Origin: Candidatus Anaerostipes avistercoris
GTDB taxonomy: Bacteria > Bacillota > Clostridia > Lachnospirales > Lachnospiraceae
NCBI GenBank assembly: GCA_019119895.1
Contig: DWWD01000017.1
Coordinates: forward strand, 1-46,539
Direction: 5' to 3'
DNA: 46,539 nt
In this document: positions 27,469 through 42,121 of the stretch, one piece after another
Layout: each line of letters opens with the position of its first letter
Numbering within the stretch: position 1 is the first letter of the stretch
The notes under the pieces: generated by a model
Database searches by the model: none
Told to the model about the DNA's origin: nothing
What the model saw: the letters and a program-made list of their open reading frames with translations, nothing else
Position numbers and translations under genes: made by a program

Positions 27469-28695
27469 ATGGATCACAGGGTCATATTTCATATTGATGT
27501 GAATTCCGCTTTTTTAAGCTGGGAAGCCGTATACCGGCTGAAACAGTCTCCGGACGCGGTGGACCTCAGGAAAATTCCGGCAATCATTGGCGGAGATGAG
27601 AGCAGAAGGCACGGGATTGTTCTGGCGGCATCTCTTCCGGCGAAAAAATATGGCATCCGCACGGCAGAAACCGTGAGAGAAGCTGTGACGAAATGTCCGG
27701 ATCTGACTTTGTGCCGCCCAAGGTATTCCATGTACCAGGAAGCTTCCAGAGCTTTTGTGGAGGAGGCCCTGAAATTTTCACCGGTTCTGGAGCAGTACAG
27801 CATCGATGAAGTGTTTCTGGATATGACAGAGTCTATTCACGCCTACGAGAGTCCCCGGCAGGCGGCGGTCCTGTTAAAAGACAGGATCCGGGATCACCTG
27901 GGATTTACCGTCAATATCGGCGTGGCACCCAACAAGCTGCTTGCCAAAATGGCGTCAGACTTTGAGAAGCCGGATAAGGTTCATACGCTGTTTCCGGAAG
28001 AAATTCCGGAGAAAATGTGGCCTCTGCCGGTAAAGGATTTATTTCTCGTTGGAAAAGCTACCCAGAAGAAACTCAGTCTCCTGGGGATTCGGACCATTGG
28101 AGAGCTTGCTCAGATGGATCTTAAAATGCTGCAGGCTCATGTGGGCAATAAGCACGGACAGACACTGTACAATTATGCCAGAGGAATCGATCTCTCTCCG
28201 GTGGATCCGGAGGAGGGGCTGAATAAAGGATACGGCAACAGCATTACTCTGGCCAAAGATATTGATACACTGGAGGAAGCGGATCATGTGCTGATTTCTC
28301 TGTCAGAAATGGTGGCCTCCAGGCTCAGGAAAGATCATGTGCGCAGTTCCTGCATTTGTGTGGAAATCAAAGGAACGGATTTCAGAAGGAGTACTCATCA
28401 GCGAAAGTTAAGGACGCCGACCGATATTACCAATGAGATCTCCAGGACAGCCAGAGAGCTTTACCGGGAAAACTATACAGGCAGATCTGTCCGGCTGATC
28501 GGAGTCCGCGCCACGGATATTACAGAGGAAGAATTTGCCCAGCTGGATCTTTTTGAGCAGGAGCAGCGGGAAAAATTAAGAAAACTGGATGCATCCATTG
28601 ATAAAATCCGGGCGAAATTCGGGAAGGATTCGGTGCAACGGGCCAGCTTTCTGAAGGGAGATATCGGTCACATGACAGGAGGGCACAGAGAATAG
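27469..28695 (+). CDS. dinB: DNA polymerase IV (Y-family translesion polymerase)
   Basis: This error-prone polymerase copies damaged DNA. It has 408 residues. The catalytic acidic residues appear as HIDVNSAF (Asp10) and YSIDEVFLD (Asp113, Glu114). A helix-hairpin-helix region (GKATQKKLSLLGIRTIGELAQM, about 185-207) and a C-terminal little-finger domain complete the fold. The last 50 residues include QLDLFEQEQREKLRKLD, which contains a QxxLF-like clamp-binding motif, more usual at the extreme end. It starts with AAAGGAGG 9 bases upstream, 37 bases after psd. No LexA-like box was noticed. Confidence 0.94.
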   Translation: MDHRVIFHIDVNSAFLSWEAVYRLKQSPDAVDLRKIPAIIGGDESRRHGIVLAASLPAKKYGIRTAETVREAVTKCPDLTLCRPRYSMYQEASRAFVEEALKFSPVLEQYSIDEVFLDMTESIHAYESPRQAAVLLKDRIRDHLGFTVNIGVAPNKLLAKMASDFEKPDKVHTLFPEEIPEKMWPLPVKDLFLVGKATQKKLSLLGIRTIGELAQMDLKMLQAHVGNKHGQTLYNYARGIDLSPVDPEEGLNKGYGNSITLAKDIDTLEEADHVLISLSEMVASRLRKDHVRSSCICVEIKGTDFRRSTHQRKLRTPTDITNEISRTARELYRENYTGRSVRLIGVRATDITEEEFAQLDLFEQEQREKLRKLDASIDKIRAKFGKDSVQRASFLKGDIGHMTGGHRE

Positions 28696-28732
28696 AAACA
28701 TTTTGTTAATAAAAAATTAACAATTGAAATAC

Positions 28733-28761
28733 TTGATTAACATAATAAAACTTGGTATAAT
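28733..28761 (+). promoter_or_regulatory. Promoter of the secreted C39-like peptidase gene
   Basis: TTGATT at 28733-28738 and a perfect TATAAT at 28756-28761 have a 17-base spacer and TGG just upstream of the -10. Confidence 0.7.
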
Positions 28762-28809
28762 CTCGATTAAAAGGGAATTGTCGAAGAACAGGTTTTACCG
28801 GAGGGTTTT

Positions 28810-29523
28810 ATGAGAATCATGAAAAGAACCGGCAGGTATCTTGCCGCAATTTGTTTCAGTGTACTTATGGCAGTACAGCCGGCAGCAGTGAAAGCTGACG
28901 AAGAACAGCAGACGAAGGAATTAAACGTGGTATATTATAATCAGGCAGATTATCCGGGAGAGAAGATAGGGGGCAGCACCATTCAGGCAGCCGGATGCGG
29001 ACCTACATGTGTCGCAGTAGCCTACAGCTCTCTGACAGGAAAAGAAGCCGATGTGCCGAAGATGTGTGATCAGGCATATGAGAACGGCTGGTATTTTACC
29101 GGACAGGGCTGTACCCATAATGTAATTCCGGGACTGTGTGATATGTACGGGCTGGACTGCACCGGACTGGGAATGGATATCAGCGCCATTAAGAAAGCTC
29201 TTCGGGCAGGACATCCTGTGATCGCTCTGATGGGGCCGGGAGACTTTACAGACAACGGACACTTTATCGTCCTGACCAAGATGGTCGGAGAGGACAAGGT
29301 TCAGGTAGCGGACGTAGGAAGCCGTGCCAATACTGCAAAGACATGGTCGCTGAAAGACGTTGTCAGCCAGGGAAAACAGGGTGCCAAAGTGGGCGGTCCG
29401 TTTTGGGAGATCAGTAAAAGAGAAAAGAAAACAGAGAAAGTAGATTATAAAGAGAAAGTTCAGGAAGAACAGGAACAATTAAACGCAGTACCGACTGCAA
29501 TTGAAAATATCATACATGAATAA
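28810..29523 (+). CDS. Secreted C39-like cysteine peptidase domain protein
   Basis: The 237-residue protein starts with a signal peptide: basic MRIMKRTGR, a hydrophobic core, and a likely cut after VKA about residue 29. The mature part is a papain-like C39-type domain with catalytic Cys63 in QAAGCGPTCVAVAYSSLTG, His151 in DNGHFIVLT and Asp168 in VADVG. Such domains cut peptides, often at double glycine in bacteriocin leaders, but here no transporter or bacteriocin gene is near, and stand-alone secreted forms are common in Lachnospiraceae. The C-terminal tail (about 200-237) is highly charged. It has its own promoter and a strong terminator. Substrate unknown. Confidence 0.85.
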   Translation: MRIMKRTGRYLAAICFSVLMAVQPAAVKADEEQQTKELNVVYYNQADYPGEKIGGSTIQAAGCGPTCVAVAYSSLTGKEADVPKMCDQAYENGWYFTGQGCTHNVIPGLCDMYGLDCTGLGMDISAIKKALRAGHPVIALMGPGDFTDNGHFIVLTKMVGEDKVQVADVGSRANTAKTWSLKDVVSQGKQGAKVGGPFWEISKREKKTEKVDYKEKVQEEQEQLNAVPTAIENIIHE

Positions 29524-29529
29524 AAAACA

Positions 29530-29577
29530 GGACCGCATGCAGGAATACCAGAAGGTATCCGGCCATGCGGTCTTTTT
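29530..29577. terminator. Bidirectional terminator between convergent genes
   Basis: GACCGCATG (29531-29539) pairs with CATGCGGTC (29564-29572), with an inner GGAATACC/GGTATCC stem. T-runs stand on both strands, serving the peptidase gene and the leftward CoA-transferase gene. Confidence 0.85.
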
Positions 29578-29584
29578 CTGCCTT

Positions 29585-30889
29585 TTAAGCCTCGTAAGGA
29601 CAGTGGAATCGTTCTTCAAATGTCTGGATCAGATCCGCTCTGAAATCAGGATGTGCAATCTTGATCAGTGCTTTTGCACGGTCTCTTAAAGTCTTTCCTT
29701 TCAGATGAGCGATTCCATATTCCGTTACGACATAATCGATATCATTTCTGGAAGTGGTGACAGCAGCCCCCTCGTCCAGAAGCGGTACGATTTTTGAGAT
29801 TTTGCCTTTGGCAGCTGTGGATGGCATTGCAAGAATAGCGATGCCGTTTTTGGCCATGGAGGCGCCGCGGATGAAATCCACCTGTCCTCCGGTTCCGCTG
29901 ATCTGTTTTAATCCGATGGATTCGGAACATGCCTGTCCCATCAGATTGATCTGTACGCTGGAATTAATGCATACAATATGATCATTTTTCGCGATAACAA
30001 CAGGATCATTGGTAAAATCCGCAGGGTACATAGCAACACTTTCATTATGGTCTACAAAATCATATAAACGTTTGCTTCCCATGAGGAAATTTGCCACCAT
30101 TTTTCCCGGCAGAAGTTCCTTCTTCTTGTTGGTGATAACACCGGCTTCCACTAATTCAACCACTCCGTCGGAGAACATTTCAGAGTGGATGCCCAGATCC
30201 TTTTTACCTTTCAGGCTGAGAAGCACCGCGTCAGGGATCGCGCCGATTCCCAGCTGTAAGGTGTCGCCGTCGTGGATCAGGGAAGCGCAGTTAGCGCCTA
30301 TGGCCTTTTCCACATCGCCAAGGACAGCAGGCTTTAACTCAGGAAGAGGAGCGGAGTGTTCCACGAAATAATCAATTTCAGAAACATCCATCTGGCTGTC
30401 GCCGTAAGTATAAGGCATCTGATCATTCACCTGGGCGATTACGATTTTCGCGTTTTTGGCGGCGGCCCTGGTGTAATCGACGGAGACACCGAGACTTACT
30501 TTTCCGTGCTGATCCGGCGGTGTGACCATGATCAGCGCGACATCGACCGGAATCTCTGTCTCGAATAACCTTGGAACTTCATAGAAGAAACAAGGAGTGT
30601 AATCTCCTCTTCCTTCGCTGACAGCCTGTTTTGTATTCGCGCCCACAAAGAGCGCGTTATGGCGGAAGTGTCCTTCCATGCCTTTCTGACAATATTCATT
30701 TTTGCCGAGAGAAACCATATGGCATATTTCTACATCCTGATACCACTCTTTGTGTTCAGACATGACGGTTAACAGGTAAGAAGGTTCTCCGGCAGCGTGA
30801 CCGGAAACGACCCGGCTGCCGTTGGAAATATGTTTTAATGCTTCTTCGGCTGAAGTGGTTCGCTGTTTATATAATGTTTCCCAATCCAT
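29585..30889 (-). CDS. abfT: 4-Hydroxybutyrate CoA-transferase (acetyl-CoA hydrolase/transferase family)
   Basis: This 434-residue family I CoA-transferase moves CoA from acetyl- or butyryl-CoA to 4-hydroxybutyrate. The conserved C-terminal region VVTEYGIAHLKGKTLRDRAKALIKIAHPDFR includes the catalytic glutamate of this family (EYG), and QLGIGAIPDAVL (about 216-227) is the CoA-binding signature. Its pairing, 20 bases downstream of the 4-hydroxybutyryl-CoA dehydratase gene, fixes the likely substrate; other short hydroxy acids remain possible. The ATG has GGAGGAATT upstream. It is transcribed leftward from the sigma-54 promoter before abfD and ends at the shared terminator. Confidence 0.88.
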   Translation of the reverse strand: MDWETLYKQRTTSAEEALKHISNGSRVVSGHAAGEPSYLLTVMSEHKEWYQDVEICHMVSLGKNEYCQKGMEGHFRHNALFVGANTKQAVSEGRGDYTPCFFYEVPRLFETEIPVDVALIMVTPPDQHGKVSLGVSVDYTRAAAKNAKIVIAQVNDQMPYTYGDSQMDVSEIDYFVEHSAPLPELKPAVLGDVEKAIGANCASLIHDGDTLQLGIGAIPDAVLLSLKGKKDLGIHSEMFSDGVVELVEAGVITNKKKELLPGKMVANFLMGSKRLYDFVDHNESVAMYPADFTNDPVVIAKNDHIVCINSSVQINLMGQACSESIGLKQISGTGGQVDFIRGASMAKNGIAILAMPSTAAKGKISKIVPLLDEGAAVTTSRNDIDYVVTEYGIAHLKGKTLRDRAKALIKIAHPDFRADLIQTFEERFHCPYEA

Positions 30890-30909
30890 AATAATTCCTC
30901 CCGGATTCT

Positions 30910-32361
30910 TTAGTCTTCGATCTTTGCGATCGCTTTTGCGAGTTTCTTCTTCATGCGCATATTGCTCTGACGGGAAATCATGATTCTCTGTGCCTGAGGA
31001 GAACCTGCTCCGTGCATAGATTCAGTGCGGTATCCGACAGCGGCACTTCCCAGTGTCAGGTTTTCGATCAGACGCAGGATTCTCATTCTGTTTTCCGTTG
31101 ATACGTCGGCAACGCCGCGGAAGTATTTATCAATGTATGCTCCAAGTTTCGGATCTTTCATATCTTTCTCAGAAGGAGCGGTTACCATAAGGCCTCCGGC
31201 AATATCCTCTGCCAGGCGGGCGATTTCATATGGGAAACGTGTAACGTTCTGCTTGCAGACATTGGCAAGAAGCAGGTCGATCAGATAGTTTCCTGATTTT
31301 GTCGGAGAACCTTCTGCGGAACAGGCAATGCCGCAGCAGTATAAAGTCTCGTTTAAATGTGTCATTTCAATTAATTTATCTTTAATATGAGAAGCTCTCT
31401 GAGCACCGTTATATTCGGCGGCAACAGCAGCGGCTCCGATCAGCACATCTCCTACGCCGACTTTGCATCCGCCGTAGGACTGTCTGTGATATCCGGCGAA
31501 ACGTTCTACCAGAACACCTGCAAATTCATATTCTCCATTTAAGAAAATTCGGTCATTTGGTACGAAAACATCATCAAATACAACCAAAGCTTCCATTCCG
31601 CCATACTGAGAGTTTCCGACATCAATCTCAGAACCTTCCAGTTTTCTTGTATCGCAGGACTGGCGGCCGACAACCATGAAAATTCCTTCCGCATCGGTTG
31701 GAACAGCAAATGATACGGCGTAATCTTTATCGTCTTCTCCCATAGCGATGGTCGGCATAACAATCACTTCGTGAGAGTTGATAATACCGGTCTGATGGGC
31801 TTTGGCGCCTCGTACGACAATTCCGTCCGGACGAGTTTCAACAACATGGAGGTAAAGATCCGGATCTGCCTGCGCATGAGGCGCCAGAGAACGGTCACCT
31901 TTCGGATCCGTCATAGCTCCGTCTACAGTCAGGTCATTTTCCTGCACATATTTTAAGAATTTTTTGAAATTTTCATGATAATTGGTTCCATGAGCTTCAT
32001 CTGTTTCATATGTTGTGCTGTAAACAGCATTGAACGCATCCATTCCAACGCATCTCTGGAAACAGGCAGCTGTTTTCTGTCCGCACAGACGCTGCATCTT
32101 AACCTTTTTCATCAGATCATCGGTGTTTTGATGGATGTGAGTGAAACGATTGACACGAGTTCCTGTGATCGTAGACTGCGCTGTCATCAGATCTTCATGT
32201 TCCGGCATCTGAGCCAGATCATAAGTTGCCTTTACGGAATTCAGAGACGGACGAAGAATCGGATGATCAACCGGATTCTCGATTCTCTCCCCGAACATAT
32301 ATACCTGAAGATTCAGTTTGCGCATGCTTTCCACATATTCATTTCCTGTCATTAATGCCAT
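30910..32361 (-). CDS. abfD: 4-Hydroxybutyryl-CoA dehydratase / vinylacetyl-CoA isomerase
   Basis: This 483-residue FAD and [4Fe-4S] enzyme converts 4-hydroxybutyryl-CoA to crotonyl-CoA by a radical mechanism. Cluster ligands can be seen as C100 and C104 in KTAACFQRC, H292 and C299 in AGYHRQSYGGC; the characterised clostridial enzyme uses C99, C103, H292 and C299, so all four are kept. The 4-hydroxyphenylacetate hydroxylase-like fold is evident throughout. With the CoA-transferase it funnels 4-hydroxybutyrate (from succinate or GABA) to butyrate-type fermentation. No 4-hydroxybutyrate dehydrogenase is adjacent. The start is ATG 32361 with GGAAGGTTA upstream. A 236-base leader separates it from the sigma-54 promoter. 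Confidence 0.94.
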   Translation of the reverse strand: MALMTGNEYVESMRKLNLQVYMFGERIENPVDHPILRPSLNSVKATYDLAQMPEHEDLMTAQSTITGTRVNRFTHIHQNTDDLMKKVKMQRLCGQKTAACFQRCVGMDAFNAVYSTTYETDEAHGTNYHENFKKFLKYVQENDLTVDGAMTDPKGDRSLAPHAQADPDLYLHVVETRPDGIVVRGAKAHQTGIINSHEVIVMPTIAMGEDDKDYAVSFAVPTDAEGIFMVVGRQSCDTRKLEGSEIDVGNSQYGGMEALVVFDDVFVPNDRIFLNGEYEFAGVLVERFAGYHRQSYGGCKVGVGDVLIGAAAVAAEYNGAQRASHIKDKLIEMTHLNETLYCCGIACSAEGSPTKSGNYLIDLLLANVCKQNVTRFPYEIARLAEDIAGGLMVTAPSEKDMKDPKLGAYIDKYFRGVADVSTENRMRILRLIENLTLGSAAVGYRTESMHGAGSPQAQRIMISRQSNMRMKKKLAKAIAKIED

Positions 32362-32606
32362 AGTGAGTAACCTTCCTTTCGTAAATAAATCATTATTATA
32401 TGTATCTGTGTCTCCTTTGCGGAGTGTTGAACAAAGTGATAATCAGCCAGACCGGCATCATCCGGATGGATATTTGTTTGGATACGGATACAATAGCTCT
32501 TGACTGTACGGGGCAACAGCACAAAGAGTGAGGATAAATGAGGAACGTCATGGATGGACGTTTCTTGATCATCCGGAACCGCCGGCTGAGCTTACACTTA
32601 ATTTAA

Positions 32607-32624
32607 AAGCAAGAATTGTGCCAA
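32607..32624 (-). promoter_or_regulatory. Sigma-54 (-24/-12) promoter of abfD-abfT
   Basis: The minus strand reads TTGGCACAATTCTTGCTT. GG and GC are exactly 10 bases apart and nearly every consensus position of TGGCAC-N5-TTGCW is matched. The start would be near 32597. Confidence 0.88.
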
Positions 32625-32700
32625 CCCAATGGAAAAATAAAAAAATTTTTTTATAAAAAAGCAAAAACCTGTTTTTTTGTCCATAAAAAGAGGGTGACAG

Positions 32701-32812
32701 CCCGGATTTATACTTTTCAGCTGCATGAAAAGGAAGCTGTTTTATCCGGGACAGCAGCGTTTGTTTTGGTGCAAATATGAAACAATTGAGAAAATTGATG
32801 CAAAACTGCAAC
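32701..32812. promoter_or_regulatory. Candidate activator-binding (UAS) segment between the two sigma-54 promoters
   Basis: CCCGGAT (32701-32707) and ATCCGGG (32744-32750) form a perfect spaced dyad, with CAGCT/AGCTG (32718-32722, 32735-32739) inside it. TGCAAA-type repeats stand at 32770, 32799 and 32807. The PAS activator encoded downstream is the obvious candidate ligand, but no binding motif is known to me. Confidence 0.35.
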
Positions 32813-32853
32813 AAAACAGCGAAAAAAAGAAAGCAAGATACAGGTAGAAACAG

Positions 32854-32869
32854 TGGCATAAGATTTGCT
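32854..32869 (+). promoter_or_regulatory. Sigma-54 (-24/-12) promoter of the nifU-like/lux-type cluster
   Basis: The sequence TGGCATAAGATTTGCT keeps GG and GC exactly 10 bases apart and matches the TGGCAC-N5-TTGCW consensus except for T in place of the final C of the -24 element. The start would be near 32880. Confidence 0.85.
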
Positions 32870-32940
32870 ATATATAAATTACAGAAAGAAAAATTTCACA
32901 GATAAAATAAATCAATTAAGAGAGAAGGAGGAAGAAGCGT

Positions 32941-33168
32941 ATGCTGCAGACGATTGAAGAGGTGCTGGACAATAAAGTCCGGCCGAAACTGCTGGAACAC
33001 GAGGGAGATGTAGAAGCAGTAGAATATAAAGAAGGAATTTTGAAAGTAAGGCTGCTGGGACAGTGTGCAGGATGTCCGTCTGCCCAGCTGACGACGGAAG
33101 AGCTGATCAGCGATGTGATTTGCTCAGAAATTCCTGAAGTAAAAGAAGTGGTCTTGTACATGAAGTAA
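32941..33168 (+). CDS. NifU C-terminal domain-like protein
   Basis: This 75-residue protein equals a single NifU-C (Nfu) domain: TIEEVLDNKVRPKL...EGDVEAVEY, then LLGQCAGCPSAQLTTEELI with the CxxC pair that holds a labile Fe-S cluster during transfer to client proteins. Its strong GAAGGAGGAAG site and its place as the first gene behind the sigma-54 promoter suggest a dedicated cluster donor for this operon. A possible client is the CGGC domain next door; the divergent dehydratase, an Fe-S enzyme, is another. Both links are inference. It looks intact. Confidence 0.88.
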   Translation: MLQTIEEVLDNKVRPKLLEHEGDVEAVEYKEGILKVRLLGQCAGCPSAQLTTEELISDVICSEIPEVKEVVLYMK

Positions 33169-33231
33169 GTCCGGATCTGCTTGATATGGCCAGGAACATT
33201 TTAAACCGCAGACATACATCGGAGGATTCAT

Positions 33232-33975
33232 ATGAAAGCAGGAATTAAATTTTGCGGCGGGTGTAATCCAAGATACGACAGAGGCAGCCAGACGACCGGT
33301 CTGAGAGAAAGGCTGAAGGAAGTACAGTGGGTTTCCGGAGATGATTCTCAGGTCTGCGATTTCTGGCTGATCATATGCGGATGCTCCAGAGCCTGTGTCA
33401 GTACAGAAACGTTATCTGCGAAACAGAAGATTCTGGTCATAAAAAGTTTGATGGATTTTTCCAGGGCTGAAGAAGAGATAAAAAAGGCTGTGGGACAGGA
33501 GAAAAAGCAAAACAGACAGAGAAAGTACCTGAAAGTGGGAATGACAGCCTCCATGGAAAAACAGATAACAAAGAAAGATGTGGAAGAATTCGCGGGATTG
33601 ACCGGTGACTATAACAAAATGCACATGGATGAAGCATTTGCAGCAGATCAGTGGTTTCAGAAAAGAGTGGTTCACGGTATGTTCAGTTCCAGTCTGCTGT
33701 CTTCTGTTATGGGAATGAAACTTCCGGGAGATGGAACAATTCTGATGGAAGAATCATCAGAATTCAGAAAACCGGTCTTTTTGGGAGATGTGCTGACAGC
33801 AGAGATTACATTTACCGGATACCATGAAGAAAAGATGTTTTATATTGGTAAGTTTACTGGAATCTGCAGGAATCAGAAAGGTGAAGTTGTGACAGAAATG
33901 AAAGCCAGGCAGATGATGATGAAAAGATTATTTAAGATAGGAGGAGTTAACAATGACAAATCTGGAAAAATATGA
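33232..33975 (+). CDS. Fusion protein: CGGC-type cysteine-rich domain plus MaoC-like (R)-enoyl-CoA/ACP hydratase
   Basis: The protein has 247 residues. The first 75 or so form a small cysteine-rich module: IKFCGGCNPRYDRG (C8, C11), then LIICGCSRACV with three more cysteines, possibly binding a metal or Fe-S cluster. A basic linker (QEKKQNRQRKYLK) leads to a hot-dog MaoC domain (about 100-240) with the catalytic pair Asp126 and His131 in LTGDYNKMHMDE and VVHGMFSSSLLSSVMGMKLPG. MaoC hydratases interconvert (R)-3-hydroxyacyl and enoyl thioesters. It ends 23 bases inside the acyl carrier protein gene. No stop or shift separates the two halves, so it is a true fusion as read here. Confidence 0.82.
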   Translation: MKAGIKFCGGCNPRYDRGSQTTGLRERLKEVQWVSGDDSQVCDFWLIICGCSRACVSTETLSAKQKILVIKSLMDFSRAEEEIKKAVGQEKKQNRQRKYLKVGMTASMEKQITKKDVEEFAGLTGDYNKMHMDEAFAADQWFQKRVVHGMFSSSLLSSVMGMKLPGDGTILMEESSEFRKPVFLGDVLTAEITFTGYHEEKMFYIGKFTGICRNQKGEVVTEMKARQMMMKRLFKIGGVNNDKSGKI

Positions 33976-34192
33976 CAAAGTATTTCGGCGGGTGCTGAAA
34001 AAGGAACAGGATGAACTAAAAGATCTCAGATACCGCGGAGTACCAAGCTGGGATTCTCTCGGACATATGAATCTGATCGGAGAATTGGAAGAAATGTTTG
34101 ATGTTATGCTGGAAACTCCGGATATGCTTGCTTTCTCTTCATACGAGAAAGGAAAAGAAATTCTGAAAAAATATGGTGTGGTGATCCAGTGA
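33953..34192 (+). CDS. Acyl carrier protein, cluster-specific
   Basis: The protein has 79 residues and an ACP-like helical bundle: WDSLGHMNLIGELEEMFDV carries the phosphopantetheine serine (Ser35) in the DSLGHM form, followed by an acidic recognition helix. It overlaps the MaoC gene by 23 bases and has an AGGAGG site 8 bases before its ATG. It would carry acyl chains for the MaoC hydratase, the acyl-AMP ligase and the LuxE/LuxC-like proteins encoded after it. The gene appears intact although its downstream partners are not. Confidence 0.85.
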   Translation: MTNLEKYDKVFRRVLKKEQDELKDLRYRGVPSWDSLGHMNLIGELEEMFDVMLETPDMLAFSSYEKGKEILKKYGVVIQ

Positions 34193-34193
34193 G

Positions 34194-34328
34194 ATGGGAC
34201 AGATAGAAGTATTCACAGATTCTCTCACGGACAGCCGCTGTTACTGCATAGAAGAGGAAGGGAAAGTCCTGATCATAGATCCCAATCAGGGAGAAGAAGT
34301 AATCACCAGATTTCCAGGAGAAAGTTGA
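34194..34328 (+). pseudogene. Metallo-beta-lactamase-fold protein, N-terminal remnant
   Basis: A 44-residue frame starts one base after the ACP stop. It begins IEVFTDSLTDSRCYCIEEEG followed by KVLIIDPNQGEE, the usual first strands of a metallo-beta-lactamase-fold hydrolase (general form P...NCY.I......IIDPG). The HxHxDH metal motif and the rest of the roughly 200-residue fold are absent; the sequence runs straight into LuxE-like coding sequence in another frame near 34311. A deletion therefore joined the two genes. The short match makes the family call moderate. Confidence 0.55.
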
Positions 34329-34870
34329 AAAGATGGCGGATGTTCCAATGATGCCGGTCAATGCATTTAAAAAATACGAACTCAGGAGTATCGGGGAAGA
34401 AAAAATTTTTAAGATTCTTACATCCTCCGGGACTTCAGGTCAGAGAACGTCAAAAATTTATTTGGATGAAGAAACGGCAGCCCGTCAGCAGCAAACTCTG
34501 TTCCGGATTCTGGAAGAGAGACTGGAAAGGCGTGAGCCGTTTTCTGAAAGCATACGCCGGACAGCCGGTGCTGATTTTCGGATGTATTTATCTGGAGTGC
34601 GGATGCGGTCACCTTCATGCCAGCACTTATTCTGATCTTATCATCCGGGATATGGAAGATTTTTCGGAATGTCCGGTGGGGAAAGAAGGTGTGATCCAGG
34701 TTCTGTCTCCGATGGCAGCTTCTTATCCGGGGCATTCTATCCTGACAGAAGATCAGGGAATCCTGCTGGGAATTGATGACTGTCCGTGTGAAAGAAAAGG
34801 AAAGTATTTTAAAATTACAGAGAGAATTCCGAAAACGGAGATAAGGGGGTGCAGCGATGTTTATGGATGA
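34312..34870 (+). pseudogene. LuxE-like acyl-protein synthetase, internally deleted and frameshifted
   Basis: LuxE-type proteins activate a fatty acid with ATP and pass it to LuxC. The first frame (from about 34312, ATG at 34333) reads MPVNAFKKYELRS and then ILTSSGTSGQRTSKIYLDEE, the adenylation signature. After about 34500 the coding sense moves to the frame with FLKAYAGQPVLIFG, which jumps directly to CIYLECGCGHLHASTYSDLI, LLGIDDCPCERKGKYFKI and EIRGCSDVYG, the family C-terminus. Around 150 or more central residues seem to be missing, so the protein is dead. Its end overlaps the LuxC-like start at 34857. Confidence 0.7.
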
Positions 34871-35678
34871 TAGGAGAATAAAGAAGTTTGCAGGCGGATG
34901 GCATGGACAGAGAGTAAATGCGTCCGTCCCTTTTTCAAATGAGGCTGTACATTTTCTCGGAGATTTGTCCGAGGAGATAAGAAAGGATCCAGAGACAGCG
35001 GCTACAGAAGATTTTTCCGCTTTTGGATTCTGGTGCAGAAAAAAGCAGCTGGAAGCCTGGAAGAAAGAATATATGGATCGAAATCAGAGACTTGGATGGG
35101 GACTGATCCTGCATATTGCACCCTCAAATATTCCTGCACTGTCCGCCTATTCTATGGTTTTTGGTCTGCTGCCAGGCAATGGGAATCTGATTCGGGTTTC
35201 CAGACGGACAAAAGAAGAGACTGCTCCTCTGTACCGGGTCATAGAGCAGGTGATGAGCCGTCCGGAACATAAGAAGTTATACGAGGAAAACCTGATTTTT
35301 ACATGCGGTCATGAGGAAGAAGAAAGAAACCAACTGGCTGTGAGATTTTATAATGACACCTATCATATGGACCAGAATGCCTGCTCCAGTCCTAAGATGC
35401 TGTTCTGGCTGGGAGATGACGAAGCAGGCATCGAAGCCTGGTGGAAGGCAGTCAGGACAGCTGCGGAGAAATATCATCTGGATGCGTGGAAGGTCTCCCG
35501 GAAGTATGAAGAAATCTGTTTTGCTGCCATGGAAAAAGAAGAAATCCGCAGTGAGATCATCCGGACCGGAGCCAGAGGCGGAGACAGGATCGTGCCGGCG
35601 GGACAGGCACTGACAATGGGACTTGTATGGGATGGAAAAGATATGATACGGAATTTGTCCCGGCGGATCATTGTGTGA
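34857..35678 (+). pseudogene. LuxC-like acyl-CoA/acyl-protein reductase, shortened by internal deletions
   Basis: LuxC enzymes reduce activated fatty acids to aldehydes with NADPH. The frame is open for 273 residues, but family members have about 400-480. Recognisable parts are LGWGLILHIAPSNIPALSAYSMVFGLLPGNGNLIRVS, the catalytic region NDTYHMDQNACSSPKMLFW (Cys176) and the C-terminal DRIVPAGQ...MGLVWDGKDMI. Compared with the family, sequence is missing between about residues 155 and 158 (nucleotide-binding part) and again near residue 222. Both losses keep the frame, so a short protein could be made, but an active reductase is unlikely. The comparison is from memory of the family. Confidence 0.7.
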
Positions 35679-35695
35679 CGGAAAGGAGGAAGAAA

Positions 35696-36480
35696 ATGTA
35701 CTTTTTTGAGGAAGGACAGTGGGAAAAGAACAGACCGTTTCTGATTTCAGATCAGGAGGGGACCGTGACGTATGGTGATCTGGACAGTTTTACAGAAATA
35801 ATGGGAAAAAAATTAAAAAAAGGAAACTGGTGTTTTTACTGTGCAGAAATACGCCGGGATCTGTTATGGGATATTTTTCCTTCCAATAAAAGGGGTAGTT
35901 CCCCTTTTATTGGAAGGAGAAATAGAGTATGATAAGGTTAAAAGACTAATGGAACGTTATGAACCGGATTATCTCGCTCTTTTGCTGACAACCTCAGGCA
36001 GCACAGGAAGTCCCAAACTGGTACGTCAGAGCTATGAGAATATCCAGTCCAATGCAGAAGCCATTGTCCGGTATCTGGAGCTGGACAGCAGAGAAAGGCC
36101 TATCACCACACTGCCTATGAGCTATACATATGGGTTGTCTATTATTCACAGCCATGCGGCGTGCGGCGCTGCAGTTTTGATGACGGAATTTTCCATGTTC
36201 CAGCAGGAATTCTGGGATTTTTTCCGGAAAGAGAAGGCAACTTCTTTTGGAGGAGTATGCGGAAATCACCGCAGTCTGTACTGGAAAAGATGACCACCTT
36301 AACATTTTTGTGGAAAAAAAGGAAAAAATTCAGGAAGCAGAATTGCTGGATTTTATCAGCGGAAGTCTGCATATGAATGAAAGTTCTTGTCATTTAATCC
36401 GGCTGGAACGGTTTCCGGTAAATGAATCAGGGAAAATACGATACAGCGAATTGGAGGGAGGAGAATGTCTTACGAATTAG
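35696..36480 (+). pseudogene. Acyl-AMP ligase (AMP-dependent synthetase family), multiply broken
   Basis: A good AAAGGAGG site precedes ATG 35696 and the first 40 or so residues (FLISDQEGTVTYGDLDSF) look like an adenylating enzyme N-terminus. The frame then breaks around a large perfect palindrome (35878-35918). It resumes in another frame with KGVVPLLLEGEIE and ALLLTTSGSTGSPKLVRQSY, the AMP-binding motif, and TLPMSYTYGLSIIHSH. Near 36245 another deletion joins this to the C-terminal hinge part (FPVNESGKIRYSELEGG) in a third frame, ending 36480 inside rpoN. Intact relatives have about 450-500 residues. It once probably loaded the ACP. Confidence 0.75.
35878..35918. repeat. Perfect 18-base inverted repeat within the ligase pseudogene
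   Basis: The left arm 35878-35895 and right arm 35901-35918 (core CCTTCCAATAAAAGGGG and its exact complement) enclose a 5-base loop. It lacks a T-run, so it is a poor terminator, and it coincides with the frame break in the ligase gene. Confidence 0.85.
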
Positions 36481-37769
36481 AGTTAGAACAGGGATTGTCT
36501 CAGCAGCTGAATCAATTTCAGATCCAGTCGCTGAATATCCTGGCATTGGATAATTATGAACTGGAACAGTTTATGCAGAATGAATTTGCGGAAAATCCCA
36601 TGCTGGAACATCACCCTTCTGATCAGCCGCCAATTTCCAAAGCAAATGCAGGCGGATGGAAAGAAAGGAAAGAAATGCCGTGGAAGGATGAAGCTGCCGG
36701 AAACAGAAAATGGATGATTCTGGATCAGCTGAATCCATCAGATTATACGAAAGAACAGTGGCGCATCATGGAATATCTGGAAGAATGTGTCGATGACACA
36801 GGAATTCTGGATATTTCCATGGAGCAGGTGAGCCGTTATCTGGATGTATCCAGGGAAGCATGCGAGTGGTGCTGGAAGGAACTAAAAAAATTGGATCCGC
36901 CGGGTGTTTTTGCAAGAGATCTGAGGGAATGTCTCTGGATTCAGCTGGAACGTTCCGGGCGCGGAAATGAGCATTTGCGCAGAATTCTGCAGGATCATCT
37001 GATGGATGTGGCAGATGGAAGAATTTCAGATATTTCCAGAGACTTGAATATTACAACAGCGCAGGTGAGGAAATATATTTTCACGATCCAGTCCCTGAAT
37101 CCAAGACCGTTATGGGGATATTCAGAAGAAAAGGAAGATTATATTATTCCGGATATTCTGCTGGTGGAAGAAAAAGATCAATGGCATGTGGAACTGAATG
37201 ACAGCTGGATGGGCGATTACGCCATGAATGACTATTATCTTAAAATGTTTCATCAGATTGAAGATCCGGAACTGAAAGCTTATTTCCGCCGGAAGTATGA
37301 ACGGTGCTGTTTTATTTTTCGCAGTATTGAGCAGAGAAGTGAAACAATATTGAAAATCTGCCAGGCTGTTGTCAGGAGACAGGAGGCCTATTTTTTAAAA
37401 GAAGGGAAACTTCAGCCGATGACTATGAAGGAAGTGGCCGATGAAATTCAGATGCATGTTTCAACGGTCAGCCGGGCTGTAAAAGGAAAGTATATTCAGT
37501 CCCGGCGGGGAACAACAGGGCTGAGAGAAGTGTTCCAGTCAGCAGCTTCTTTCGGCAGCAAAGAGAATACAACAAAAGACATTAAAGAAAAACTGCTGGA
37601 AATCATCAGAGAAGAGGATGCCAGCCGTCCGTACAGTGATCAGAAACTGTCAAATCTTTTGGAACAAGCTGGAATCCGTATATCCAGGAGAACAGTGGCA
37701 AAATACCGGAAAGAAATGGGGATCAAAGGAACTTACGAGCGGAAGATAAGCGCAGGGAAAACCGGATAA
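36465..37769 (+). CDS. rpoN: RNA polymerase sigma-54 factor
   Basis: This alternative sigma factor needs an ATP-driven activator to open -24/-12 promoters. It has 434 residues. The N-terminal glutamine-rich region I (LSQQLNQFQIQSLNILALDNYELEQFMQNEFAENPMLE) contacts activators. The central core-binding region is followed by the DNA-binding helix-turn-helix MTMKEVADEIQMHVSTVSRAVKGKYIQ (about 318-344) and the RpoN box SRRTVAKYRKEMG (about 408). All regions are intact. It starts at ATG 36465 with GGAGGGAGGAG, overlapping the ligase remnant by 16 bases, and is followed within 45 bases by an activator gene. The upstream sigma-54 promoter could give autoregulated expression. Confidence 0.96.
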   Translation: MSYELELEQGLSQQLNQFQIQSLNILALDNYELEQFMQNEFAENPMLEHHPSDQPPISKANAGGWKERKEMPWKDEAAGNRKWMILDQLNPSDYTKEQWRIMEYLEECVDDTGILDISMEQVSRYLDVSREACEWCWKELKKLDPPGVFARDLRECLWIQLERSGRGNEHLRRILQDHLMDVADGRISDISRDLNITTAQVRKYIFTIQSLNPRPLWGYSEEKEDYIIPDILLVEEKDQWHVELNDSWMGDYAMNDYYLKMFHQIEDPELKAYFRRKYERCCFIFRSIEQRSETILKICQAVVRRQEAYFLKEGKLQPMTMKEVADEIQMHVSTVSRAVKGKYIQSRRGTTGLREVFQSAASFGSKENTTKDIKEKLLEIIREEDASRPYSDQKLSNLLEQAGIRISRRTVAKYRKEMGIKGTYERKISAGKTG

Positions 37770-37813
37770 AAAAACGCCGGCAGACAGGAATGTGGTCAGA
37801 AAGGATGGAAATT

Positions 37814-39250
37814 ATGGAGGAAGATAAAAGAAATCGTATTTTTCAGACTGCAGAAGAAGCGCAGAAACATTTGGAAGAAATCATAGAACATTCCTTTGAC
37901 GGGATCTATATTACAGATGGAAATGGAAATACGATTATGGTCAATCGTGCCTATGAACAGATTACGGGTCTTAAGAAAAAAGAAGTACTGGGGAAGAATA
38001 TGGAATCTCTGGTGCGGTCAGGGGTAATTTCTGTATCCGGATCTCTTCATGCGATCAGGGAAAACAGAGTGGTTACATTGTCCCAGGAATTCAAGACCGG
38101 AAAGAAGGCAGTCATTACCAGCTCTCCGATTTATGATGAGGATGGGGACATATCTATGGTCGTAACCAATGTAAGAGATCTGACAGAAATCTATCAGTTA
38201 AAGGAAAGAGTGGTGGAGCAGAAACAGGAAGAAGAGAAACTCCGGCAGAATCTCATGCATGTACAGAACCAGATGATGGAGGAAGATATGATCGTTCAGG
38301 ATGAGAACGCTCTGAGAGTCGTGTTTATGGCGGATAAAGTGGCGCCGCTGGATGCTACGGTTATGCTGCTGGGAGAAACCGGCGTTGGAAAGGAAGTATT
38401 CGCACGGTATATTTTCAAAAAGAGTCACAGAAAAGATCAGAATTTTATCAAAGTAAACTGCGGCGCGATTCCGGAAAATCTTCTGGAAAGCGAGCTCTTC
38501 GGTTATGAAAAGGGAGCTTTTACCGGAGCCAGCCGCAATGGAAAGATTGGTCTGTTTGAGCTGGCGGATAAGGGAACCATATTTCTGGACGAAATAGGAG
38601 AACTTCCCCTGAATATGCAGGTAAAACTTTTGCGCGCCATTCAGGAAAAAGAAATTGAGAGGATAGGGGGAACCAGACCGATCAAGATCGATGTTCGTAT
38701 TATTGCGGCGACTAATCGGAATCTGGAGGCGATGATGCAGGAAGGAAAATTCCGGGAGGATTTGTACTATCGCCTGATGGTATTTCCGATTCAGATTCCT
38801 GCTCTGAGGGAGAGACCGGGAGATATCGAACCCCTTGCCGGATTCTTCCTGGAAAAGTTCAATAAAAAATATAATTTTCATAAAAGATTCTCGGAGGGAA
38901 CTATGTATCTCCTGAAAGAATATCAATGGCCGGGGAATATCAGGGAATTGAAAAATATAGTAGAGAGGGCGATCATTATCAGCAATGGCGATGAAATCGA
39001 TCAGGATGCCGTGCCGATTTTCCATCGGGATACCAGCGCACGGCAGACAAAGAGAACGCGGCGACCGGTTCGTGATCTCAGACGGGAATTGCAGAGAATT
39101 GAAGCAGAGTATATGGAGGAAGCATATGAAAAATACGGCAATGTCAGAGATGCAGCCGCAAGCCTTGGAATGAATGCGTCAACCTTTGTGAGGAATAGGA
39201 AAAAGTATCGGGAAACTATAGGAAAAGCCACACAGGAAGGTGTTGAATGA
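37814..39250 (+). CDS. PAS-domain sigma-54-dependent transcriptional activator
   Basis: This enhancer-binding protein has about 478 residues. An N-terminal PAS sensor domain (about 20-120; HSFDGIYITDGNGNTIMVNRAYEQITG) is followed by a short coiled linker. The AAA+ domain has Walker A GETGVGKE (about 187), the sigma-54 contact loop GAFTGA (234-239), Walker B GTIFLDEIGELP and LREDLYYRL. A Fis-type helix-turn-helix (about 440-475; GNVRDAAASLGMNASTFVRNRKKY) binds DNA. I prefer ATG 37814 (AAAGGA 9 bases upstream); ATG 37790 would add eight residues with poor spacing. It sits right after rpoN and most likely controls the two divergent sigma-54 promoters, sensing an unknown small molecule. Confidence 0.93.
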   Translation: MEEDKRNRIFQTAEEAQKHLEEIIEHSFDGIYITDGNGNTIMVNRAYEQITGLKKKEVLGKNMESLVRSGVISVSGSLHAIRENRVVTLSQEFKTGKKAVITSSPIYDEDGDISMVVTNVRDLTEIYQLKERVVEQKQEEEKLRQNLMHVQNQMMEEDMIVQDENALRVVFMADKVAPLDATVMLLGETGVGKEVFARYIFKKSHRKDQNFIKVNCGAIPENLLESELFGYEKGAFTGASRNGKIGLFELADKGTIFLDEIGELPLNMQVKLLRAIQEKEIERIGGTRPIKIDVRIIAATNRNLEAMMQEGKFREDLYYRLMVFPIQIPALRERPGDIEPLAGFFLEKFNKKYNFHKRFSEGTMYLLKEYQWPGNIRELKNIVERAIIISNGDEIDQDAVPIFHRDTSARQTKRTRRPVRDLRRELQRIEAEYMEEAYEKYGNVRDAAASLGMNASTFVRNRKKYRETIGKATQEGVE

Positions 39251-39459
39251 TATATCATTTTGGAGATTATGAACAGGAAGGGATTTTTGAGGAAAATGGA
39301 TTTCTTAAGATTTGTGCTCATCCACCGGAAAAGATAAGTAAATATTTCAAATTGATATACAGTATTTACAGTGAAATAACAAGGGAAGAAAAAATATTGG
39401 TAAAAACATATAAAAACATTTCCCAAAATATAAATTTTGTGTTACAATTAGTCCAATGA
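39247..39459 (+). CDS. Possible small ORF after the activator gene (doubtful)
   Basis: A 70-residue frame overlaps the activator stop by ATGA and has AGGAAGG about 6 bases before its ATG, which favours translation. Against it, the sequence is unrecognised, AT-rich, and its last codons run through the probable -10 box of ppdK (39443-39448). It has no membrane segment or motif. It could be a decayed or spurious ORF. Confidence 0.2.
   Translation: MIYHFGDYEQEGIFEENGFLKICAHPPEKISKYFKLIYSIYSEITREEKILVKTYKNISQNINFVLQLVQ
39443..39448 (+). promoter_or_regulatory. Candidate extended -10 of ppdK
   Basis: TACAAT is preceded directly by TGT (39440-39442), an extended -10. The -35 region (TTTCCC) is weak. 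Confidence 0.4.
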
Positions 39460-39496
39460 CATATGATGTGACAATATGTATTTAGGAGGTATAAAC

Positions 39497-42121
39497 ATGT
39501 CAACAAAATGGGTTTACAAATTTAGCGAAGGAAACGCTGATATGCGTAATCTTCTTGGCGGTAAAGGTGCCAATCTGGCTGAGATGACCGGATTGAATCT
39601 GCCAATCCCTCAGGGCTTTACTGTAACCACAGAAGCCTGCACAAATTACTATGAGTGCGGAGAAAAAATCAGTGATGAGGTTGCAGAACAGGTATATGCA
39701 GCAATGAAAGACCTGGAAGAAATCCAGGGCAAGAAGTTCGGAGATCTGGAAGATCCGCTTCTGGTATCCGTTCGTTCCGGAGCTCGTGTATCTATGCCGG
39801 GTATGATGGATACGATCCTGAACTTAGGTTTGAATGATGAAGCTGTAGAAGGATTTGCCAAGAAGACAGGAAATCCTCGTTTCGCATATGATTCATATCG
39901 CCGTTTCATCCAGATGTTCTCTGATGTTGTAAAAGAAGTGGACAAAGACAAGTTCGAAGAAGTGCTGGATCAGATGAAAGCTGAAAAAGGCGTAGAATAT
40001 GATACAGATCTGGATGCAGATGACATGAAAGAAGTCATCAAGAGATACAAAGCAATTTACAAGACAGCTCTGGGAGAAGATTTCCCACAGGATCCGAAAG
40101 AGCAGCTGTTCGAGGCAATCAAAGCTGTATTCCGTTCCTGGGATAATCCTCGTGCGATCTACTATCGTCGAATGAATGACATCCCTGGAGACTGGGGAAC
40201 TGCTGTTAACGTACAGACCATGGTATTCGGTAACATGGGAGACACATCAGGAACAGGTGTTGCATTTACAAGAAACCCATCTACAGGTGAGAAACAGATT
40301 TATGGTGAGTACCTGATCAACGCTCAGGGTGAAGACGTTGTTGCCGGCGTTCGTACACCACAGCCGATCACCAAATTGAAAGAAGACCTGCCGGAATGCT
40401 ATGAACAGTTTATGAACATTGCGCATACACTGGAAGAGCATTATCGTGATATGCAGGATATGGAATTTACGATCCAGGAAGGTAAATTATACTTCCTTCA
40501 GACAAGAAATGGTAAGAGAACAGCAGCAGCAGCTCTTCGTATTGCCTGCGAATTAGTAGACGAAGGAAAGATCACAAAAGAAGAAGCTGTATCCAGAGTA
40601 GAAGCAAAATCACTGGATCAGTTATTACATCCAAACTTTGATCAGGAAGCTTTAAAAGCAGCAGTACCGATCGGACAGGCTCTTCCGGCTTCTCCGGGAG
40701 CTGCAGCTGGTAAAGTTTACTTTGATGCAGAGACAGCCAAGATCCACCATGAAGCAGGATTAAAGGTTATCCTTGTACGTCTGGAGACATCTCCGGAAGA
40801 TATCGAAGGGATGCATGCAGCTGAAGGTATCCTGACAGCTCGTGGAGGAATGACATCCCATGCAGCCGTAGTTGCCCGTGGTATGGGTACAGCCTGTGTA
40901 GCAGGATGCGGAGATATTGAATTTGCAGAAGATGGAAAATCCTTTACATTAGGCGGAAAGACTGTCAATGAAGGAGATTACATTTCCCTTGATGGTTCTA
41001 CAGGTAAGATTTACCTTGGTGAAGTACGTACAGTACCTGCAAGCATCAGCGGTAACTTTGACCGTCTCATGAAATGGGCAGATGAGATTCGTACATTACG
41101 GGTAAGAACAAATGCAGATACACCTGCAGACGCTTTGAACGCAGTAAAATTCGGTGCGGAAGGTATCGGACTCTGCCGTACAGAGCATATGTTCTTCGAT
41201 GCAGAGAGAATTCCGAAGATTCGCCGTATGATCCTCTCTACAACGAAAGAAGCAAGAGAAGTTGCATTAAATCAGCTGATTCCTTATCAGAAACAGGACT
41301 TCAAAGAATTATACGAGGTAATGGAAGGAAGACCGGTCACAATCCGTTTCTTAGATCCGCCTCTTCATGAGTTCCTTCCTAACACAATGGAAGAGATCAG
41401 TGCTCTTGCACAGGATATGGGAGTTACAGTAGAAGAAATCAATATGAGACGTGCAGCTCTTCATGAGTTCAACCCAATGATGGGTCACCGTGGATGCCGT
41501 CTGGCAGTTACTTATCCTGAGATTGCCAAGATGCAGACAAGAGCCGTAATGGAAGCTGCCATCGAAGTAAAACAGGAAAAAGGATATGATATCGTTCCTG
41601 AAATCATGATCCCATTGGTAGGAGAAAAGAAAGAGCTTGCGTTTGTTAAGAATGTAGTCGTTGAGACAGCTGAAAAAGTAAAAGAGTACTATGAGTCTGA
41701 CATCCAGTACAAAGTTGGTACTATGATCGAGATTCCTCGTGCTGCACTTCTTGCTGACGAGATTGCAGAAGAAGCAGAATTCTTCTCCTTCGGAACAAAC
41801 GACTTAACACAGATGACATTCGGATTCTCCCGTGATGACGCTGGTAAGTTCTTAGATGCATATTATGACAACAAGATTTACGAGTCTGACCCATTCGCAA
41901 AACTGGATCAGAAAGGTGTTGGTCAGTTAGTTGAAATGGCAGCTAAGAAAGGAAAAGCAACTCGTCCGGACATCCATCTTGGAATCTGCGGGGAGCATGG
42001 TGGAGATCCATCTACTATCGACTTCTGCTACAGAGCCGGACTGGATTATGTATCCTGCTCACCATTCCGTGTACCAATCGCAAGACTGGCAGCTGCTCAG
42101 GCAGTTCTCAACAATAAATAG
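39497..42121 (+). CDS. ppdK: Pyruvate, phosphate dikinase
   Basis: It interconverts pyruvate, ATP and phosphate with PEP, AMP and PPi; in anaerobes it often replaces pyruvate kinase or feeds gluconeogenesis. It has 874 residues with the normal three-domain order: ATP-grasp nucleotide domain (GGKGANLAEM, SVRSGA), phospho-His domain with GGMTSHAAVVARGMG (His455, the same number as in the Clostridium symbiosum enzyme), and PEP/pyruvate TIM barrel with catalytic Cys in ICGEHGGDP. ATG 39497 with TTAGGAGGT is the family-typical start (MSTKWVYKF); the extension to 39476 uses that ribosome site as codons. No regulatory kinase/phosphatase gene is adjacent. The coding bias suggests high expression. Confidence 0.97.
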   Translation: MSTKWVYKFSEGNADMRNLLGGKGANLAEMTGLNLPIPQGFTVTTEACTNYYECGEKISDEVAEQVYAAMKDLEEIQGKKFGDLEDPLLVSVRSGARVSMPGMMDTILNLGLNDEAVEGFAKKTGNPRFAYDSYRRFIQMFSDVVKEVDKDKFEEVLDQMKAEKGVEYDTDLDADDMKEVIKRYKAIYKTALGEDFPQDPKEQLFEAIKAVFRSWDNPRAIYYRRMNDIPGDWGTAVNVQTMVFGNMGDTSGTGVAFTRNPSTGEKQIYGEYLINAQGEDVVAGVRTPQPITKLKEDLPECYEQFMNIAHTLEEHYRDMQDMEFTIQEGKLYFLQTRNGKRTAAAALRIACELVDEGKITKEEAVSRVEAKSLDQLLHPNFDQEALKAAVPIGQALPASPGAAAGKVYFDAETAKIHHEAGLKVILVRLETSPEDIEGMHAAEGILTARGGMTSHAAVVARGMGTACVAGCGDIEFAEDGKSFTLGGKTVNEGDYISLDGSTGKIYLGEVRTVPASISGNFDRLMKWADEIRTLRVRTNADTPADALNAVKFGAEGIGLCRTEHMFFDAERIPKIRRMILSTTKEAREVALNQLIPYQKQDFKELYEVMEGRPVTIRFLDPPLHEFLPNTMEEISALAQDMGVTVEEINMRRAALHEFNPMMGHRGCRLAVTYPEIAKMQTRAVMEAAIEVKQEKGYDIVPEIMIPLVGEKKELAFVKNVVVETAEKVKEYYESDIQYKVGTMIEIPRAALLADEIAEEAEFFSFGTNDLTQMTFGFSRDDAGKFLDAYYDNKIYESDPFAKLDQKGVGQLVEMAAKKGKATRPDIHLGICGEHGGDPSTIDFCYRAGLDYVSCSPFRVPIARLAAAQAVLNNK

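What the first reader, a model, noticed from the sequence alone, without database searches (positions are those of the whole stretch)
32600..32885. Back-to-back sigma-54 promoters between a 4-hydroxybutyrate branch and a lux-type acyl cluster
Minus strand TTGGCACAATTCTTGCTT (32607-32624) and plus strand TGGCATAAGATTTGCT (32854-32869) both show the strict GG-N10-GC spacing. rpoN and a PAS-type activator lie at the end of the rightward cluster. Seen directly: the promoter sequences and gene order. Established: sigma-54 needs an activator with GAFTGA, present here. Inferred: the one activator serves both promoters and so links 4-hydroxybutyrate use to acyl-thioester metabolism.
Basis: partly seen in the sequence, partly recalled or inferred. 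Interest (0 to 1): 0.8.

Follow-up and report, generated by a model that had tools for sequence, protein, structure and literature searches.

The report
Divergent sigma-54 promoters controlling 4-hydroxybutyrate genes
Two facing-away sigma-54 promoters, with probable activator binding sites between them and the activator and a sigma-54 gene downstream, very probably switch on a 4-hydroxybutyrate fermentation locus; similar wiring was already predicted in Clostridium, and here the linked acyl-reduction genes are broken.

Summary
In detail: both -24/-12 elements are where stated and are the window's only exact matches. Exact matches alone prove little; genus members without an RpoN match hold 5-16 each. 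Conservation is the evidence. Of 38 abfD (dehydratase) genes compared, 15 have an exact site within 400 bp upstream; in the other 23, sites with GG and GC intact have at least three mismatches. All 14 genomes with such a site that were searched have rpoN; none of the 13 without rpoN has the site. Ten of the 15 have a second, outward site before a nifU-like gene. A conserved palindrome, TGTTGCA-N4-TGCAACA, lies between the promoters. The one-activator idea is well supported but essentially published: Nie et al. 2019 list XanR with targets abfD-nifU-hyp-ach-golB and acp-caiC-luxEC. Apparently new: the outward-facing layout, a paralogous rpoN inside the regulon, and decay of four lux-side genes in this strain, so the acyl link looks vestigial here. 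Three related activators near abfD have lost the sigma-54 contact loop; their abfD genes lack -24/-12 sites but keep palindrome cores.

The parts
32607..32624 (-). -24/-12 (sigma-54) promoter of the leftward operon (4-hydroxybutyryl-CoA dehydratase, 4HB CoA-transferase); 262 bp before the start codon
   Evidence: exact counterpart upstream of 15 of 38 abfD genes, this one included
32854..32869 (+). -24/-12 (sigma-54) promoter of the rightward operon (nifU-like gene onwards)
   Evidence: counterpart before the nifU-like gene in 10 of the 15 loci, this one included, two of them with one mismatch
32767..32784 (.). probable activator binding site (UAS), TGTTGCA-N4-TGCAACA with 2 mismatches
32796..32813 (.). 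probable activator binding site (UAS), 1 mismatch
   Evidence: one of only 2 places with 0-1 mismatch in the genome
30910..32361 (-). abfD: 4-hydroxybutyryl-CoA dehydratase/vinylacetyl-CoA isomerase
   Evidence: Pfam HpaB_N/HpaB; 1u8v E=1.7e-246, with CFQRC and HRQSYGGCK stretches identical
29585..30889 (-). 4-hydroxybutyrate CoA-transferase
   Evidence: best matches 3eh7, 3gk7/3qdq
32941..33168 (+). NifU-domain protein with CxxC (possible Fe-S carrier for AbfD; inferred)
33232..33975 (+). CGGCNPRYDR stretch followed by a MaoC-like domain; frame intact
33953..34192 (+). small acyl-carrier-protein-like protein, frame intact (name by position and recall; no Pfam match)
34188..34304 (+). remnant of a metallo-beta-lactamase-fold gene (39 of 223 residues)
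   Evidence: against the G254 gene
34318..34864 (+). luxE remnant in two frames
34857..35678 (+). luxC remnant, one frame, two internal stretches missing
35696..36456 (+). AMP-ligase remnant in three frames, residues 230-387 missing
36465..37769 (+). rpoN (sigma-54), the paralogue of this locus
   Evidence: TIGR02395 above cut-off; RpoN box SRRTVAKYR
37790..39250 (+). PAS - AAA+ (GAFTGA) - Fis-type HTH activator (XanR-like)

Best explanation
This is a XanR-type sigma-54 regulon. A PAS-domain activator binds palindromes (TGTTGCA-N4-TGCAACA) between two outward-facing -24/-12 promoters. On an unknown small-molecule signal it remodels sigma-54 RNA polymerase at both. Leftward it switches on 4-hydroxybutyryl-CoA dehydratase and CoA-transferase (4-hydroxybutyrate towards crotonyl-CoA and butyrate). 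Rightward it switches on a nifU-like protein, a MaoC protein, an ACP-like protein and, further down, rpoN and the activator gene itself, giving a possible positive loop. In relatives such as G254 the rightward operon also encodes an acyl activation/reduction set (AMP-ligase, LuxE, LuxC, MBL); in this strain that set has decayed. Shown: sequence elements, gene identity by homology, conservation, co-occurrence, decay. Inferred: binding, activation, the operon reaching rpoN, the loop, the signal, the enzyme functions.
For: Exact -24/-12 before 15 of 38 abfD genes; among the other 23 the best sites with GG and GC intact have three or more mismatches, and only 4 (G330, G071, G084, G091) have a two-mismatch site, each with GG or GC broken. 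Random 400-bp pieces of the same loci, true sites not removed, reach one mismatch or fewer in 159 of 7800. Site and rpoN: 14 of 21 genomes with rpoN, 0 of 13 without (Fisher p=1.6e-4). Activator homologue in the fetched locus: 14 of 15 with a site, 5 of 23 without (4 of 23 within 12.5 kb, p=5e-6). In the genus the activators that are not LevR-sized occur in the same 4 of 11 genomes as abfD. Palindrome: 13 of 24 sites with up to 2 mismatches fall in 1.7% of the sequence scanned; leaving out G254 and G048, which suggested the motif, 9 of 17. Two of the genome's 13 such places lie between the promoters. Gene content matches the XanR row of Nie et al., as does the Clostridium drakei locus.
Against: No transcript data. 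Six of the 15 loci with a site lack the palindrome core (up to 2 mismatches) upstream of abfD: G251, G025, C. drakei, G067, G373, G298. Cores are also enriched upstream of abfD genes that have neither a site nor a loop-less activator (17 in 9.0 kb, 137 in 329 kb elsewhere), so part of the enrichment is unspecific. In the window alone the count up to 3 mismatches is unremarkable (5 found, 6 of 100 shuffles reach it). Five of the 15 have activators of two other clades. The rightward UAS-promoter gap here is only about 40 bp, shorter than the 100-250 bp common in Nie et al.. G255 has abfD, rpoN and an activator with a GAFTGA variant but no -24/-12 before abfD. C. drakei was found through its activator. 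Related genomes are not independent, so the p-values are optimistic; several genomes are incomplete.
Confidence: 0.82

Rival explanations
1. Chance matches: one or both -24/-12 elements are fortuitous and the operons use sigma-A promoters.
For: Genus members carry 5-16 exact matches even where no RpoN match was found; the class with up to 2 mismatches is at chance level.
Against: Position-specific conservation across 15 loci, near all-or-none distribution, and co-occurrence with rpoN and the activator.
Confidence: 0.04
2. Only the leftward promoter is activator-controlled now; the rightward one is a relic, because the lux genes it used to serve have decayed.
For: Four consecutive rightward genes are broken.
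Against: The rightward -24/-12 is exact, and nifU-like, MaoC, ACP-like, rpoN and activator frames are intact; in G251 a nifU-activator pair with no lux genes found next to it keeps the same promoter.
Confidence: 0.1
3. The two promoters depend on the other sigma-54 system of the cell (LevR-like activator and its own rpoN) rather than on the local activator.
For: A LevR-like activator with GAFTGA, a mannose-type PTS operon with a -24/-12 site and a second rpoN lie together at C35. Either sigma-54 might read both promoter sets.
Against: LevR-sized activators are present in genus members in which no abfD was found (G252, G253, G256), while the PAS activator tracks abfD.
Confidence: 0.05

Closest known systems
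XanR sigma-54 regulon of Clostridium (Nie, Dong, Yang 2019, BMC Genomics 20:565, PMC6615313, Table 1)
   Same: Same target families: abfD, nifU, a hypothetical gene, a CoA-transferase/hydrolase, and ACP, acyl-ligase, LuxE, LuxC, under one enhancer-binding activator with -24/-12 promoters.
   Different: The paper lists XanR in Clostridium only and reports one sigL per genome. Here: outward-facing promoter pair, rpoN inside the regulon, a second rpoN in the genome, MaoC and MBL genes, decayed lux genes. The published UAS motif and operon maps are in a figure and supplement that I could not see, so a divergent layout there is not excluded.
PrdR / NifA-type enhancer-binding proteins
   Same: PAS-AAA+-Fis architecture; the best NCBIfam scores are PrdR and NifA, both below cut-off.
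   Different: Different neighbourhood and targets (4-hydroxybutyrate locus, not proline reductase or nif).
GAFTGA-less enhancer-binding regulators of sigma-70 promoters (TyrR, DhaR, Rhodobacter and Caulobacter NtrC; PMC3162934, PMC10274813, passages)
   Same: Like the loop-less activator homologues near abfD in G054, G318 and G071.
   Different: Those three belong to PAS/4-hydroxybutyrate loci; the window's own activator keeps GAFTGA.

Membership tests
sigma-54 promoter | GG-N10-GC with -24/-12 consensus | tested here: met
sigma-54 promoter | element conserved at the same position in relatives with rpoN and absent in relatives without it | tested here: met
   (14 of 21 genomes with rpoN; 0 of 13 without)
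sigma-54 promoter | transcription start about 12 bp downstream and dependence on rpoN | not testable with these tools
   needs RNA
XanR regulon (Nie et al. 2019) | enhancer-binding activator with GAFTGA and Fis-type HTH, encoded near its targets | tested here: met
   HTH_8 scores just under its cut-off (21.6 vs 22)
XanR regulon (Nie et al. 2019) | target genes abfD-nifU-hyp-ach-golB | tested here: inconclusive
   abfD, nifU-like, a CGGCNPRYDR gene and CoA-transferase present, split over two divergent operons; what golB is was not tested, and the permease-like gene that fills its place in C. drakei was not found in the window
XanR regulon (Nie et al. 2019) | second target operon acp-caiC-luxEC | tested here: inconclusive
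   all four families recognisable, but luxE, luxC and the ligase are decayed here; full-size frames in G254, G292 and G278
XanR regulon (Nie et al. 2019) | published XanR UAS motif | not testable with these tools
   motif only in Fig. 3 / Table S3, not held
4-hydroxybutyryl-CoA dehydratase | Fe-S and catalytic residues (C99, C103, H292, Y296, C299, K300; numbers recalled) | tested here: met
   CFQRC and HRQSYGGCK identical in the alignment with 1u8v
4-hydroxybutyryl-CoA dehydratase | enzyme activity | not testable with these tools
   -
RpoN (sigma-54) | curated family model and RpoN box | tested here: met
   TIGR02395 355 bits vs cut-off 277

The most novel reading that the evidence does not exclude
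The locus is a self-contained sigma-54 module, its own sigma-54 gene, activator and promoters in one regulon, working beside an independent LevR-like/rpoN pair in the same cell. In a related group the same kind of PAS regulator was rewired to ordinary sigma-A promoters by losing the GAFTGA loop, with loss of -24/-12 and retention of the operator, so these bacteria would offer a before/after series of a sigma-factor switch at one metabolic operon.
Probability: 0.35. Interest if true: 0.62.

Novelty: new variant of a known kind. Interest (0 to 1): 0.42.

Why it matters
It extends a regulon predicted in Clostridium to an unnamed family of relatives (probably Lachnospiraceae; my inference). It gives a concrete operator sequence and promoter pair to test for control of a pathway that can feed butyrate formation. 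It also suggests that sigma-54 control of the same genes comes and goes as a unit (promoter, contact loop, rpoN), which makes the evolution of sigma-54 dependence testable at one locus.

Tried and rejected
Counting exact -24/-12 matches genome-wide as evidence was rejected: genus members without an RpoN match have as many or more. An identical 16-mer in G243 (C5:108740) was checked as a relic of the locus and rejected: no abfD-locus gene in the 11 kb fetched. A structured RNA leader in the long abfD 5' region: no Rfam family reached its gathering score in 28000-40000, and the leader had no similar DNA in the other loci then held (E up to 0.01). Viral carriage of the activator: one weak partial hit in IMG/VR, not pursued. 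Of the five genome-contig loci found with the activator, only C. drakei was used for the abfD counts: L046, L047 and L049 had no abfD, and L050 was only scanned for sites. Naming the organism by plasmid records gave nothing useful; no call names it. Literature searches for XanR with abfD and for luxC/luxE with 4-hydroxybutyrate terms showed no other paper on this link in the titles and abstracts listed (one search listed 6 of 67, one search listed 20 of 21); other searches. From Nie et al. I read parts 1 and 2 of 6 and passages; from PMC12316311, PMC10274813 and PMC3162934 passages only; the rest as search listings.

Full report
Observation. Both elements are at the stated places and are the only exact TGGCAYNNNNNTTGCW matches in the window; looser matches are at chance level. 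The genome (G000, 2.83 Mb) has four exact matches: these two, one before a mannose-type PTS operon beside a LevR-like activator, and one near genes I take from recall for spoVG/murC. The bare count is uninformative: the four genus members without an RpoN match have 5, 9, 16 and 10. What matters is two outward-facing sites in one intergenic region, where about 0.002 are expected.

Genes. Leftward: abfD (4-hydroxybutyryl-CoA dehydratase; 1u8v) and a 4-hydroxybutyrate CoA-transferase. Rightward: nifU-like, CGGCNPRYDR-MaoC, ACP-like, remains of MBL, luxE, luxC and AMP-ligase genes, then intact rpoN and PAS activator with GAFTGA. Against the proteins of genus member G254, MBL keeps 39 of 223 residues. 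LuxE pieces lie in two frames. LuxC keeps one frame but lacks about residues 149-209 and 287-332 (two pieces overlap, so the edges are rough). The ligase lies in three frames and lacks residues 230-387. By contrast the NifU-like (72 of 92 residues), MaoC, ACP-like, RpoN and activator proteins each align in one frame, the last four nearly end to end. Several separate deletions in four neighbouring genes are hard to explain by sequencing error, but one assembly is all I have.

Conservation. I gathered every abfD place of a 397-genome family sample (34 places in 31 genomes at E up to 1e-150), the further genus members G254, G251 and G255 and the Clostridium drakei locus, which was found through its activator: 39 loci, 38 with a usable abfD start (L145, a fragment, was left out). 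Fifteen abfD genes have an exact -24/-12 within 400 bp upstream. For the remaining 23 the best site with GG and GC intact has three or more mismatches; with GG or GC broken, four have a two-mismatch site. Random 400-bp strand-specific pieces of the same loci reach one mismatch or fewer in 159 of 7800, true sites not removed. An activator homologue lies in the fetched locus for 14 of the 15, against 5 of 23 (4 of 23 within 12.5 kb, Fisher p=5e-6). For the fifteenth, G278, the contig ends inside abfD, and another contig ending in abfD carries the activator. Of 34 genomes searched for the RpoN DNA-binding domain, 21 have it; all 14 genomes with the promoter are among these, and none of the 13 without it has the promoter (p=1.6e-4). 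C. drakei was not in that search. Relatedness makes these p-values optimistic. A low-stringency BLAST of the window's whole intergenic region against the other loci (E up to 0.1) returns six short patches: three on the rightward -24/-12 (G254, G251, C. drakei), two on the palindrome stretch (G254, G021), and one in G255 that looks like chance.

Back-to-back pair. Of the 15 loci, six including the window have an exact second site facing the nifU-like gene (window, G254, G251, G048, G292, G278) and G352 has one with one mismatch. In G021, G265 (exact) and G170 (one mismatch) the activator gene sits between the two promoters. So 10 of 15 share the pair; five do not.

Operator. In G254 and G048 perfect palindromes TGTTGCA-N4-TGCAACA lie between the promoters. 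With this motif the window has TGATGCAAAACTGCAACA (32796-32813) and TGGTGCAAATATGAAACA (32767-32784); in the window alone the count up to three mismatches is not striking (5 found, 2.1 expected, reached by 6 of 100 shuffles). Across the genome 13 places have two or fewer mismatches, two of them here, and only two places have one or none; the pattern read backwards has 1 place. In the fetched loci 13 of 24 such sites fall in the 4.5 kb of promoter regions out of 264 kb; without G254 and G048, from which the motif came, 9 of 17 in 3.9 of 237 kb. Against: six of the 15 loci lack the 14-bp core upstream of abfD, and the 20 loci with neither a site nor a loop-less activator also show some excess of cores there (17 in 9.0 kb, 137 in 329 kb elsewhere). 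G025/G298 and G067/G373/G352 have activators of other clades, and G025/G298 show a TCTCA-N4-TGAGA-like repeat instead.

Sigma-54 paralogues. The window rpoN is only 30-31% identical to the LevR-linked rpoN. It falls in a clade (support 0.99, midpoint-rooted) with the rpoN genes of G254, G251, G048, G170, G265, G278 and G292, which have close relatives of the window activator (G292's is cut by the contig end), and also with those of G253, G255 and G256 (G021's rpoN was too short for the tree). rpoN sits inside the rightward operon in the window and G254, and elsewhere in the fetched locus in G292, G278, G265, G352, G373 and G388. In genus member G253, rpoN (52%) lies beside the same C39 peptidase gene that flanks the window's locus, while abfD and the PAS activator were not found, as if the locus was lost, or never gained, around a resident rpoN.

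A switch away from sigma-54. Five loci keep abfD with ACP-like, ligase, luxE and luxC genes but have no -24/-12 before abfD: G330, G384, G054, G318, G071. G330, G384 and G054 have no RpoN match; G318 and G071 do. In G054, G318 and G071 an activator homologue in the fetched locus (next to abfD in the first two, 12.6 kb away in G071) has lost the GAFTGA loop: four alignment columns deleted and the rest replaced. These three form a clade of their own (support 1.00), placed near the XanR-like clade with weak support. Their abfD upstream regions hold palindrome cores (nine in 1.35 kb against 37 in 53 kb elsewhere), in the sequence shown close to TATAAT-like boxes (by eye). In G071 a TGGCACGGATTATGTT stretch, -24 half kept and -12 half broken, may be a relic. 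Loss of GAFTGA with a move to sigma-70 promoters is known for TyrR, DhaR and some NtrC proteins; here it would be a further case. G298 (GAFTGG) keeps the promoter.

Known work. Nie et al. 2019 predicted the XanR regulon (abfD-nifU-hyp-ach-golB; acp-caiC-luxEC) in Clostridium, with one sigL per genome. C. drakei is in their genome set and its locus here has that gene order; that its activator is their XanR, and that the permease-like gene is their golB, are my inferences. A 2025 survey also notes sigma-54 control of the abfD family (COG2368) in Clostridia.

Noticed in passing
L125:7398-8810, L126:10821-12248, L129:531-2000: Activator homologues near abfD that lost the GAFTGA loop; their abfD lacks -24/-12 but has palindrome cores upstream, near TATAAT-like boxes.
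   Followed up: partly
L014 (G000:C35:33000-45000): Second sigma-54 system: LevR-like activator (878 aa, GAFTGA), -24/-12 site, mannose-type PTS operon and its own rpoN.
   Followed up: partly
window 34188-36456: MBL, luxE, luxC and AMP-ligase genes decayed by several deletions while downstream rpoN and activator are intact.
   Followed up: yes
window 32362-32607: The abfD leader is unusually long (promoter 262 bp from the start codon, against 48-156 bp in the 14 other loci with a site) and had no similar DNA in the other loci held.
   Followed up: partly
L082:7159-9323: In G253 rpoN lies beside the C39 peptidase gene that flanks the window locus, while abfD and the PAS activator were not found in that genome; a LevR-sized activator is present.
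   Followed up: partly
L059:5739-7182; L048:8214-9575; L119:6555-7971: A permease-like protein of about 450 aa (no Pfam match for the G254 and C. drakei copies) accompanies the regulon in several relatives, with its own -24/-12 site in G254 and G265.
   Followed up: no
L129 (G071), about 340 bp before abfD: TGGCACGGATTATGTT: a possible broken -24/-12 site in a locus whose activator homologue lacks GAFTGA.
   Followed up: no
window 45277-46539: IS30-family transposase frame at the contig end.
   Followed up: no
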